From Amycolatopsis acidicola (GTDB taxonomy: Bacteria; Actinomycetota; Actinomycetes; Mycobacteriales; Pseudonocardiaceae), in contig NZ_VMNW02000011.1 of NCBI RefSeq assembly GCF_007713735.2, forward strand, positions 62,001 to 126,000: a DNA stretch of 64,000 nucleotides. Direction: 5' to 3'. The position numbers and the translations under genes were made by a program. This document shows positions 49,674 to 51,811 of this stretch, piece after piece (the first letter of the stretch is position 1; every line of letters starts with the position of its first letter). Under the pieces are notes generated by a model. The model did no database searches, had not been told where the DNA came from, and saw only the letters and a program-made list of their open reading frames with translations.

Positions 49674-49679
49674 CTTGGC

Positions 49680-50057
49680 GTGCTGGTCGGCGCCGCGCTG
49701 GGCATGAGCGGGGCGATTTTCCAGAGCCTGCCCCGGAATCCGCTGGCGTGCGGGTGGAGCCGAGCCAGCTGTACCTGATCGTTGTCGGCACGGCCGCGTG
49801 CGCCATCGCGACAGCGACCGCCGGGCCCATCGCGTTCGTCGCGCTCACCGCAGCTCGCGAAACGGCTCACCGGCGCGCCCGGCGCGGGTGAGCTGCCCGC
49901 CGCGTGGATGGGTGGTTTGCTTGTGCTGACAGCGGATTACCTCGCTCAGCGCGCGGCCGGCTCGACGACGCTGCCGGTCGGGGTGGCGACCGCGGCCATC
50001 GGCGGCGTCTATCTGGCTTGGCTGCTGTGGCGTCGTTCGCCGGTGGGCGGCCGGTAG
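49680..50057 (+). pseudogene. Decayed FecCD permease remnant
   Basis: Three FecCD fragments follow one another in different frames. VLVGAALGMSGAIFQSLPRN followed by PLA (from 49680) is the N-terminal signature. LYLIVVGTAACAIATATAGP followed by IAFVALTA (about 49770-49850) is the later AGPIxFVAL signature in another frame. QLAKRLTGAPGAG through ADYLAQR to TTLPVGVATAAIGGVYLAWL (about 49850-50040) is the C-terminus, back in the first frame. A full permease needs about 340 residues; about 125 remain. Two frameshifts and a large internal deletion are therefore evident. It begins a few bases after the ABC pair and was probably once part of that operon. Confidence 0.85.
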
Positions 50058-50075
50058 CCGCCTTTTCGGAACGTG

Positions 50076-50147
50076 TGCCCCCGCCAGGAATCGAACCTGG
50101 ATCGCCGGCTTCGGAAACCGGTGTCGTATCCGTTGGACCACAGGGGC
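50076..50147 (-). tRNA. tRNA-Arg (CCG)
   Basis: The minus-strand 72-base fold has acceptor GCCCCTG/CGGGGGC (one U-G pair), anticodon arm CCGGT-TTCCGAA-GCCGG with anticodon CCG, T-arm CCAGG-TTCGATT-CCTGG and discriminator A. Reads CGG codons. No encoded CCA. Confidence 0.94.
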
Positions 50148-50154
50148 TTTGGAG

Positions 50155-50182
50155 CCGGCCCCCTGCGCGCGCAGGGGGCCGG
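50155..50182. repeat. Perfect 28-bp palindrome between two tRNA-Arg genes
   Basis: CCGGCCCCCTGCGC followed directly by its complement GCGCAGGGGGCCGG, with no loop. It fills nearly all of the 39-base spacer between the tRNA genes. As RNA it would be a very stable stem, plausibly a terminator or a processing signal. Confidence 0.7.
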
Positions 50183-50186
50183 GGCG

Positions 50187-50260
50187 CACCCCGGCGAGGA
50201 CTCGAACCTCGGACCTCCGCGTTCGTAGCGCGGCGCTCTGTCCCACTGAGCTACCGGGGC
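50187..50260 (-). tRNA. tRNA-Arg (ACG)
   Basis: The minus-strand 74-base fold has acceptor GCCCCGG/CCGGGGT (G-U at the first pair), D-arm GCTC/GAGC, anticodon arm CCGCG-CTACGAA-CGCGG with anticodon ACG (modified to ICG in bacteria), T-arm CGAGG-TTCGAGT-CCTCG and discriminator G. Reads CGU, CGC and CGA. Confidence 0.94.
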
Positions 50261-50442
50261 AAAGTGTTACGGCAAAAGGAAAACGCTGAGAAATCAGCGG
50301 AAGTCGCGGCGGGCACGCTGCCACCGCGCCACGGCGGAATGCCGTCGCGCCTGGTGGCGGGCTCGTGTCGCGTTCATGCCCCCGAGTCTCACCGACTCAC
50401 GGGGCCAGTGTCAACGGAATTAACTCGCCCCAGCCCCGCTGC

Positions 50443-50823
50443 CGCCATATTGGCGCCTCCCGGCCATGTGTTGGCCCCTCCAGCCGCCATGCTGGCCCAT
50501 CCCAGGCGACGTGTTCGCCCACCCCGCCACCGTCTTGGGCCTTCACGCCACCATGTTCGCCTCGGCCACCGCCGTGTTTGCCCCTCCCGGCGGCGTGTTC
50601 GCCCCTCCCGGCCATGTATTGGCCCCTACCGCTGGCATGTTGGCCTACCCCGGCCACCGCTCCATTGCCGACCGTGGCCCGCGTTCCCCCGCACCAGCCA
50701 ACAAACACACCCCGGCAGCCAACACACCGACGCCACGAGCCAACACGCCCGCAGGGGCGGCCAACACGCCCACGGGGCCCGCCAACGCACGCGCGCGAGC
50801 GGCAAACACGCCCACCCCGGCCA
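50443..50823. repeat. 21-bp-periodic repeat array in two opposed blocks
   Basis: In the 573-base gap between tRNA-Arg and the ligase genes, a degenerate unit like CGCCATGTTSGCCCCTCCCGG recurs. Its TTSG-type core lies at 50450, 50471, 50492, 50514, 50535, 50556, 50577, 50598, 50619 and 50640 (steps of 21, one of 22). The inverse core CCAAC lies at 50698, 50719, 50740, 50761, 50782 and 50803 (every step exactly 21). The first block reads in one direction and the second in the other. All frames stay open because the unit lacks stops, but I see no gene. Bases 50261-50442 hold nothing recognised. Confidence 0.85.
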
Positions 50824-50833
50824 CCGCTGCGGC

Positions 50834-51811
50834 CTAGGGCTTCTTCGCCCTGCTCGGAGCCACCCGGGGCGGCTCGTTCGGCATTTTGGGGTAGACCGGC
50901 GGCCAAGGAGCGTCCATCAGGCCGTTTTCCATGTCGCGCCGCGACATTTCCAGTAACGGTTCGATCGACTGGGGCGGCGCGTCCGCCCAGGGATCACCGG
51001 ATTCGGCGACGCGGGCGGGCACCGTCGCGATGGTCAGCTCGGCAGGCACCACCGTGGCCAGCTCGTCCCAGCGGATCGGCGTGGACACCTGGGCGCCGAC
51101 TCGCGGCCGCACGCACCAGGCGCCGAAAACCGTTTTGTGCGGCGCATTCTGGTTGAAGTCCACGAACACGCGGCTGCCGCGCTCTTCCTTCCACCATTGC
51201 GCGGTGATCAACACGGGATGGCGTCGCTCGAGCTCACGCGCCAACGCGACCGCGGCCGCCCGGACCTGATAGCCGTCCCAATTCGGTTGCAGGGGAACAT
51301 AAATGTGCAAACCGCGAGAACCCGTCGTCTTCAGCAGCGCACGGATTCCCAGCTCCGCCAGCAACTCCCGGGTCAATGCCGCCGCCTCGCGCACCTGGTC
51401 GAACGTGACACCCGGCGAAGGATCGAGATCCACCCGCAGCTCGTCGGTGATCTCCGGCGTCGCCGCGTGCACGGGCCAGACGTGGAAGCCGATGCAGCCG
51501 AGGTTGACCGCCCAGACGATATGCGCCAGATCCGCCGCCACCAGCGCATCGCTCGTGGTGCCGTTGGGAGTGGCGACGACCGTCGTGGTCAGCCACGGCG
51601 GCGCCGATTTCGGCACCCGCTTCTGGAACCACGACTTGCCACTCGCCCCGTCGGGATACCGCTCCAGCAACAGCGGACGTCCGCCCAAAGTGGACAGCAG
51701 CGGGCCCGCGACGGCCTGGTAGTACCGGACGAGGTCGAGCTTGGTCTCCCCGCGCTGGCTGAAGTACACCTTCTCCGGATGCGAAACGGGCACGCCCTCG
51801 AGCTCGGTCAT
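50834..51811 (-). CDS. ligD: LigD-type DNA polymerase/primase domain protein
   Basis: Stand-alone archaeo-eukaryotic-primase-type polymerase of 325 residues from ATG (complement of 51809-51811). The catalytic acidic pair lies in DELRVDLDPSPG, with the active-site SRGLHIYVPL and VFVDFNQNAPHKTVFGAW. In bacterial non-homologous end joining this domain fills gaps before sealing and inserts ribonucleotides. It overlaps the ligase gene by four bases (ATGA). No phosphoesterase (PE) domain is present. A longer frame inside the ligase gene is rejected. Confidence 0.92.
   Translation of the reverse strand: MTELEGVPVSHPEKVYFSQRGETKLDLVRYYQAVAGPLLSTLGGRPLLLERYPDGASGKSWFQKRVPKSAPPWLTTTVVATPNGTTSDALVAADLAHIVWAVNLGCIGFHVWPVHAATPEITDELRVDLDPSPGVTFDQVREAAALTRELLAELGIRALLKTTGSRGLHIYVPLQPNWDGYQVRAAAVALARELERRHPVLITAQWWKEERGSRVFVDFNQNAPHKTVFGAWCVRPRVGAQVSTPIRWDELATVVPAELTIATVPARVAESGDPWADAPPQSIEPLLEMSRRDMENGLMDAPWPPVYPKMPNEPPRVAPSRAKKP

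What the first reader, a model, noticed from the sequence alone, without database searches (positions are those of the whole stretch)
50443..50823. Array of 16 degenerate repeats with strict 21-bp spacing in two inverted blocks
Ten TTSG-type cores step by 21 bases (one step is 22) from 50450 to 50640, and six inverse CCAAC cores step by exactly 21 from 50698 to 50803. The unit varies but the spacing does not. A period of 21 bp is two helical turns, so every unit faces the same side of the DNA, as expected for cooperative protein binding or looping between the two opposed blocks. It is not CRISPR (no spacers), and the 22-base step shifts the frame, which argues against a protein repeat. I know of no named element like this.
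Basis: seen in the sequence. Interest (0 to 1): 0.8.

Follow-up and report, generated by a model that had tools for sequence, protein, structure and literature searches.

The report
Phased 21-bp repeat arrays after genes
The spot holds one member of a large family of fast-changing 21-base repeat arrays that sit just after the ends of genes in soil actinobacteria, and whose strict spacing and shared core suggest that a protein reads them, though no reader or function has been shown.

Summary
In detail: 10 units plus 6 inverted units at 21 bp (one 22-bp step); lag-21 identity z = 9.8, 0 of 1000 shuffles as high. It is not a one-off. The unit (core GTGTTBGCC) recurs in dozens of arrays in this genome and some relatives; arrays with other cores, at 21 or 22 bp, occur in other Amycolatopsis and Saccharomonospora. 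In 391 sampled class genomes outside the family the pattern stays at 0-2. Arrays lie after stop codons, most often between convergent genes, and rarely in divergent regions. Unit number differs between 96%-identical genomes, yet off-phase steps per substitution are 8-20 times rarer than indels in ordinary intergenic DNA, or 6-14 times rarer than simulated. The core is shared between loci more than the rest. Opposed blocks show no compensatory pairing and their polarity differs between genomes. Best reading: intergenic minisatellites kept in phase by a sequence-specific binding protein. No binder or function is shown; a functionless expanding satellite is the main rival.

The parts
50443..50652 (+). 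Left block: 10 units, core T[GAC][TC]T[GCT]G[CG], 21-bp steps with one 22-bp step
50653..50696 (.). Centre between the two opposed blocks; 50 bp between the last left core and the first right core
50697..50822 (-). Right block: 6 inverted units (GCCAACAC-type on +, GTGTTGGC-type on -), exact 21-bp steps, ending about 11 bp from the ligD-like stop codon
50834..51811 (-). LigD-type primase-polymerase gene; its stop codon (50834-50836) is next to the right block
50284..50299 (-). Intrinsic-terminator-like hairpin (6-bp stem, then TTTTCCTTTT) beyond the array, between ligD and the tRNA genes; a consensus match only (3 such found in the scanned stretch, 0.9 expected)
50186..50260 (-). tRNA-Arg (acg), next gene to the left; tRNA-Arg (ccg) follows at 50075-50147, also minus

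Best explanation
The feature is one member of a family of intergenic minisatellites of Pseudonocardiaceae that sit directly behind gene ends. Each is made of one or two blocks of head-to-tail 21-bp (in some species 22-bp) units, often two blocks in opposite orientation. SHOWN here: the family, its place after stop codons, rapid gain and loss of whole units, conservation of step length, and a core (GTGTTBGCC here, GAGTT-type elsewhere) that is more conserved between loci than the rest of the unit. INFERRED: the core is the recognition site of a sequence-specific DNA-binding protein of the genus that coats each block with one subunit per unit at a fixed step, so that units of wrong length or core do not serve and are lost while unit number is free to change. 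INFERRED and weaker: the coated array is a symmetric barrier or topological insulator between converging transcription units (it leaves promoters free and fills 3' ends). The identity as a phased minisatellite family I hold at above 0.9; the number below is for the binding-protein mechanism.
For: Own genome: 93 BLAST matches; exact three-unit pattern 68+57 in G000, 89+117 in G012, 49+88 in G009, present in 8 of 19 genus genomes, 0 for the read-backwards control in all 19. A strict array rule finds 53 arrays in nine stretches and 1 in the reversed sequences; weight-matrix chains 37 and 29 against 0 and 0. Phase without assumption: of 190 pairs of exact cores within 130 bp in 800 kb of G012, 178 lie at multiples of 21 (pairs within one array are not independent). 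Phase under constraint: ordinary intergenic regions G012 v G001 give 39 indels per 360 substitutions (0.108; 62 regions of 50-500 bp, those with under 40 aligned bases or over 20% divergence dropped); arrays give 4 off-phase events per 752 substitutions in G012 (0.0053) and 8 per about 587 in G000 (0.0136); planting indels at the ordinary rate into the G012 arrays gives 0.076 with the same pipeline. Core under constraint: identity between loci, interior units only, core columns 0.89 v other columns 0.60 (G012), 0.66 v 0.44 (G000); between adjacent units in G000 core columns 0.90 v 0.65 for the columns behind it. Place: 38 array loci in 1.464 Mb: 20 convergent, 16 codirectional (14 nearer the upstream stop), 1 divergent, 1 in a called gene; convergent excess p = 3e-7, divergent lack p = 1e-6 against intergenic regions of 100 bp or more.
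Against: No binder was identified, and there are no binding or transcription data here. Some whole blocks are homogenised to off-consensus cores (TCTTGGCC x4, AGTTGGCC x4), so exact core identity is not strictly required. In G012 the core is only a little better kept between adjacent units than the columns behind it (0.88 v 0.78). 11 of 19 genus genomes lack the TGTTBGCC array pattern and 180 of 249 family genomes lack the broader one, so arrays are dispensable or carry other cores. Only 20 of 233 convergent gene pairs hold one. Two-block polarity is opposite in G012 and G000, hard to fit with a polar barrier. My detectors were trained on core matches and favour in-phase chains, which the simulation only partly corrects.
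Confidence: 0.42

Rival explanations
1. Functionless (selfish or neutral) minisatellites: an old 21/22-bp seed sequence sits behind many genes and is amplified by slippage or unequal recombination wherever extra DNA does no harm, i.e. away from promoters and coding sequence.
For: Unit number differs between 96%-identical genomes (main blocks 10 v 7, 4 v 2, 9 v none detected, 17 v 2, 16 v 2, 4 v 3); units within a block resemble each other more than other loci (adjacent units 0.73 v 0.58; 0.66 v 0.47); absent from many genomes; place after genes is also what tolerance predicts.
Against: Indels are 8-20 times too rare relative to substitutions against ordinary intergenic DNA, 6-14 times against the simulation, and the core is conserved between loci while the spacers are less so; pure copying would treat all 21 columns alike. 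The TT core is kept in a genome of about 70% GC.
Confidence: 0.32
2. RNA element: the two inverted blocks fold into a long hairpin in the transcript and end transcription or protect the mRNA 3' end, in the manner of REP/BIME elements.
For: Inverted blocks behind genes; the eleven outward two-block loci of G012 folded have z-scores from -1.6 to -12.1 over both strands; hairpin pairing does not depend on which way the blocks point.
Against: Opposite blocks of one locus are no more complementary in their spacers than blocks of different loci (0.567 v 0.580; 0.447 v 0.466), and in-register pairs do not exceed other loci (G012 0.560 in register, 0.533 off register, 0.556 other loci; G000 0.426, 0.389, 0.447). 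Single-block arrays exist and fold near their shuffles, while one locus with two same-direction blocks folds well (-6.0, -7.0). The window locus scores z = -0.9 on + and -4.0 on - (25 shuffles each). A terminator-like hairpin lies beyond the array on the ligD strand.
Confidence: 0.15
3. Phased DNA-shape element: TT steps every two turns in GC-rich DNA give curvature or wrapping that suits gyrase, HU or another non-specific architectural protein absorbing supercoils between converging genes.
For: Period near two helical turns; TT among the best kept columns; preference for convergent intergenic regions, where positive supercoils are expected to meet.
Against: A 22-bp array of 16 units breaks strict phasing; a core of about nine specified bases is more than curvature needs; 20 of 233 convergent pairs carry one.
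Confidence: 0.1
4. A protein-coding heptapeptide repeat.
For: 21 is seven codons and open frames run through the window array on both strands.
Against: No Pfam match for the two frames tested; 22-bp arrays; the syntenic arrays begin after stop codons and change in number between close genomes; long open frames are expected in such GC-rich DNA.
Confidence: 0.01

Closest known systems
Prokaryotic minisatellites / VNTR loci and satellites (Subirana and Messeguer 2019, PMC6749651: outline, abstract and found passages seen; PMC7852140: found passage seen)
   Same: Tandem units of 10-200 bp, unit number differing between close genomes. PMC6749651 lists A. mediterranei with 23 satellites; PMC7852140 counts 325 minisatellite DNAs in A. 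orientalis, which may well include such arrays.
   Different: Neither passage describes a common unit, a fixed step or a place behind genes. PMC6749651 finds families of transposed non-coding satellites only in Leptospira interrogans and Methanocella conradii; here many blocks share a core and a step, sit behind genes, often as two opposed blocks, with different cores in different genera.
REP/BIME elements of enterobacteria (recalled)
   Same: Interspersed, many copies, behind genes and between convergent genes, in inverted arrangement.
   Different: REPs are single palindromes of 20-40 bp (recalled); these are phased direct repeats with non-palindromic units and no sign of stem covariation.
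Direct-repeat arrays bound by head-to-tail oligomers, e.g. BldC of Streptomyces (PMC5859096; abstract and found passages seen)
   Same: Variable number of direct repeats at a fixed step, bound with polarity.
   Different: BldC has 9-bp repeats in promoters, with 2-4 subunits in the sites measured; here 21-22 bp steps, up to 17 units, behind genes, genome-wide; no binder known.
Iterons of plasmid origins (recalled)
   Same: Directly repeated units of about 17-22 bp, each bound by one Rep unit; core differs with the replicon.
   Different: Many chromosomal loci behind genes, two opposed blocks; no match of the window array in 72,556 plasmid records.
TAACTGA heptamer repeats of Beggiatoaceae (PMC4679880; abstract and outline seen)
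   Same: Genome-wide intergenic sets of short direct repeats of unproven function.
   Different: Most of those lie just upstream of start codons and keep one heptamer; these lie after stop codons, with 21-bp units and lineage-specific cores.

Membership tests
Minisatellite / VNTR | Tandem units of about 10-100 bp at one locus | tested here: met
Minisatellite / VNTR | Copy number differs between close relatives | tested here: met
   6 syntenic loci of G012 v G001 (about 96% identity), main blocks: 10 v 7, 4 v 2, 9 v none detected, 17 v 2, 16 v 2, 4 v 3; one minor block is longer in G001 (2 v 3). Not tested for the window array in a close strain
REP/BIME | Unit is an imperfect palindrome (hairpin) | tested here: not met
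   Unit GTGTTBGCC-N12 is not self-complementary by eye; the 11 single-block arrays folded score z between +2.0 and -3.0
REP/BIME | Extragenic place at 3' ends | tested here: met
REP/BIME | Associated RAYT transposase | not tested
   no search made
CRISPR array | Identical repeats with unique spacers and cas genes | tested here: not met
   Intervals of about 13 bp are alike within a block (adjacent units 0.66-0.73 identity) and cores vary; cas genes were not searched for
Intrinsic terminator | Stem-loop followed by U tract | tested here: not met
   Within the window array one weak consensus match, on - at 50712-50730; scan total 3 v 0.9 in shuffles
Intrinsic terminator | Stem kept by compensatory change | tested here: not met
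   (blocks within one genome; no alignment of orthologous stems was possible)
Protein-binding direct-repeat array (BldC-like or iteron-like in working) | Fixed step and conserved core under constraint | tested here: met
   core contrast weaker in G012
Protein-binding direct-repeat array (BldC-like or iteron-like in working) | A cognate binding protein | not testable with these tools
   needs pull-down, ChIP or EMSA
Known Rfam RNA family | Match above gathering score | tested here: not met
   49900-51100: only the two tRNAs reach it
TraB clt / FtsK-type recognition repeats | Short recognition repeats and a TraB or FtsK-like gene with matching specificity | not tested
   considered from recall; only a paper listing was seen

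The most novel reading that the evidence does not exclude
A bacterial family carries a fast-evolving 'code' of phased protein-binding arrays behind its genes, in which a trans-acting binder and its core co-evolve so that each genus has its own core while step length stays near two helical turns: a bacterial counterpart of satellite DNA with its own chromatin-like reader that separates converging transcription units.
Probability: 0.25. Interest if true: 0.85.

Novelty: new variant of a known kind. Interest (0 to 1): 0.63.

Why it matters
Families of transposed non-coding satellites are reported to be rare in prokaryotes (PMC6749651, abstract). Here one occurs across part of Pseudonocardiaceae, a family that includes the vancomycin and rifamycin producers (recalled); it lies at many contig ends of this assembly, differs in length between near-identical genomes, and yet keeps its step. 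Either a dedicated reader protein exists and can be fished out with a known bait, or a copying process exists that preserves step length; both are testable. The arrays could also serve as strain-typing markers.

Tried and rejected
Coding heptad repeat: rejected (22-bp arrays; arrays after stops). Inverted blocks as copies of each other or as a conserved stem: not supported. Rho-type C-rich sites read in the sense of the gene: dropped, because two-block polarity is reversed in G012 v G000. Plasmid or phage origin of the window array: no blastn match in 72,556 plasmid and 50,697 phage records. Known RNA: none. Other families of the order: 80 kb each of G013, G015, G016, G019 show no such array; one lag-21 hit each in G013 and G015 looks by eye like a coding repeat. 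G003 and G006, same genus, show none in 140 kb each. A. acididurans, the named species with the most similar LigD (89%), shows no array by eye in the 620 bp after ligD. The first strict motif rule missed degenerate opposite blocks and was replaced by a weight-matrix chain. One of the nine inward pairs of G000 had overlapping blocks (gap -67) and is unreliable. My gene finder does not see tRNA genes: it called the window array convergent (one of the 20), whereas its left neighbours are tRNAs on the same strand as ligD. My hand count of genomes with five or more matches (42 of 249, 13 of 46 genera) includes some coding-repeat matches, e.g. in G130, G177, G221. The 46 lag-21 regions include one run of N (L081), which also adds one to other lags, and coding repeats such as L084 were not removed.

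Literature: searches are search listings in a held open-access library; I opened four papers in part and saw no description of these arrays. Subscription journals are mostly not held.

Full report
1. Observation. Ten units step by 21 from 50443, with one 22-bp step between units 3 and 4, and six inverted units step by exactly 21 from 50697. Over 50443-50823, identity at lag 21 is 0.550 against 0.320 in 1000 dinucleotide shuffles (z = 9.8; none as high), and the best lags of 10-63 are 21, 42 and 63. The right block ends about 11 bp from the stop of a LigD-type polymerase gene on the minus strand; to the left lie two tRNA-Arg genes, also minus.

2. It is one of many. BLAST of the stretch gives 93 matches in its own 9.47-Mb genome and matches in 10 of 21 genomes searched, all ten of the genus; none in the 8 genomes of other families. 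The exact three-unit pattern TGTTBGCC at 21 bp occurs 125 times in G000, 206 in G012, 137 in G009, and in 8 of 19 genus genomes; read backwards it occurs 0 times in all 19. A motif-free lag scan of the loci then held gave 46 regions at lag 21 and 36 at lag 42; every other lag from 10 to 60 gave at most 7.

3. The core differs between species while the step hardly does. Directly behind the ligD gene of A. taiwanensis sits an array with core GAGTTCC (L072, 10 units in exact 21-bp steps). Saccharomonospora saliphila has GAGTTGCCC-type units at 21 bp, Amycolatopsis sp. GM8 has TGTTTGCC/GAGTTTGCC at 21 bp with gaps, A. acididurans has CGAGTYGRGC-type units (13 of 15 steps are 22, two are 21), and A. 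pithecellobii has a short 22-bp array with inverted blocks. By eye these units look related (CGWGTT...CGTTCCGG...); that alignment is mine and was not tested. A broader pattern finds at least one match in 69 of 249 family genomes. By my hand count 42 genomes of 13 genera (of 46) have five or more, some of them coding repeats; the backwards control is non-zero in 14 of 249 and reaches five in one. In 394 genomes of the class, none of the 391 outside the family has more than 2. At the ligD site itself, 5 of 19 genus genomes have an array in the 1.5 kb behind the gene (G000, G001, G009, G011, G012). The G011 letters look identical to those of A. taiwanensis, which it may be; the G009 array is farther from the stop and the G001 one has about three units.

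4. Place. With my own codon-usage gene finder, 38 array loci were placed in 1.464 Mb of G012 and G000: 20 between convergent genes, 16 between codirectional genes (14 nearer the upstream stop), 1 between divergent genes, 1 inside a called gene. tRNA genes are not seen by the finder; the window array is one of the 20 but is codirectional once its tRNA neighbours are counted. Against intergenic regions of at least 100 bp (79 convergent, 195 codirectional, 150 divergent), convergent regions are in excess (p = 3e-7) and divergent regions avoided (p = 1e-6). Several arrays run nearly from stop to stop. Still, only 20 of 233 convergent pairs carry one.

5. Architecture. Two-block loci point outward in G012 (14 of 14 pairs; core-to-core centre 13-16 bp in 13, 7 bp in one) and inward in G000 (9 of 10 pairs, centre 48-80 bp in eight, one pair overlapping and unreliable; one outward, 14 bp) (Fisher p = 8e-6). 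Single-block loci exist in both. Spacers of adjacent units are alike (0.73; 0.66), but opposite blocks of one locus are no more alike than blocks of different loci (0.567 v 0.580; 0.447 v 0.466), and pairing in register does not exceed other loci. So the blocks do not look like inverted copies, and no stem is seen to be maintained, although two-block RNAs would fold well because the cores can pair.

6. Turnover. G012 and G001 are about 96% identical over a 200-kb syntenic stretch. All six array loci of the G012 stretch have a counterpart or remnant in G001, mostly with fewer units; main blocks 10 v 7, 4 v 2, 9 v none detected (one degenerate unit by eye), 17 v 2, 16 v 2, 4 v 3; one minor block is longer in G001 (2 v 3). 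In G012 the last units of a block carry G at the fifth core place in 69% against 29% of interior units, as if new variants amplify inside and relics stay at one end; that they are older is inference.

7. What is constrained. Of 190 pairs of exact cores within 130 bp in 800 kb of G012, 178 are at multiples of 21 (no phase was assumed, but pairs in one array are not independent). Ordinary intergenic DNA between G012 and G001 has 39 indels per 360 substitutions (62 regions after dropping short or very diverged ones); adjacent array units differ by 4.3 (G012) and 5.1 (G000) bases, yet off-phase events are only 4 and 8, i.e. 0.0053 and 0.0136 per substitution against 0.108. Planting indels at the ordinary rate into the G012 arrays and running the same pipeline gives 0.076, so detection explains only a small part of the lack. 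The core is conserved between loci more than the rest (0.89 v 0.60; 0.66 v 0.44; interior units only). Between adjacent units the contrast is clear in G000 (core 0.90, columns behind it 0.65) and small in G012 (0.88, 0.78). Limits: chains were found with a weight matrix trained on core matches, and units after an off-phase step are out of register.

8. Mechanism. Constraint on core and step, with free unit number and no maintained stem, is what a repeated protein site predicts; BldC shows that head-to-tail oligomers on direct repeats exist in actinomycetes (PMC5859096, abstract and passages). Which protein, and whether the result is a transcription barrier, a topological insulator or something else, is open. 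A satellite without function explains turnover and patchiness at least as well, but not the step and core constraint of paragraph 7. Strict 'same face' geometry is not general because of the 22-bp arrays.

9. Novelty. The kind (tandem repeats, interspersed repeats behind genes) is known, and a paper counts 325 minisatellites in A. orientalis without describing units in the passage seen (PMC7852140). A phased, two-block, core-switching satellite spread over a bacterial family I did not find described. The survey of prokaryotic satellites calls transposition of non-coding satellites rare (PMC6749651, abstract).

Noticed in passing
G000 contig ends, e.g. C17:11-192, C21:15-112, C116:22-237, C148:64-159, C15:10-80, C36:18-218, C144:3-52, C145:40-131, C188 and C153 ends: Many contigs of the window's genome start or end inside these arrays, so they probably break the assembly; the true number and length may be underestimated.
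   Followed up: partly
window 49674-50057: Stretch between the ABC transporter and the tRNA genes whose frames read like a broken FecCD-type iron-siderophore permease (recognised from memory, not searched).
   Followed up: no
window 50284-50299, minus strand: Small hairpin with TTTTCCTTTT tail between the array and tRNA-Arg; if real, ligD transcripts have an ordinary terminator beyond the array.
   Followed up: no
L231 and L232 (G001, G023), around 1470-1560: Outward blocks meet at AACAC-gcgc-GTGTT, a short palindrome at the array centre, tighter than the 13-16 bp seen in G012.
   Followed up: no
G012:C1:1899873-1900195: A 17-unit block in which unit variants recur in a set order, like higher-order repeats of eukaryotic satellites.
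   Followed up: no
G223 (genus g33): 116 pattern matches in a 4.0-Mb genome of 83% completeness, while the other sampled genomes of that genus have 0 or 1: a recent burst or a mixed assembly.
   Followed up: no
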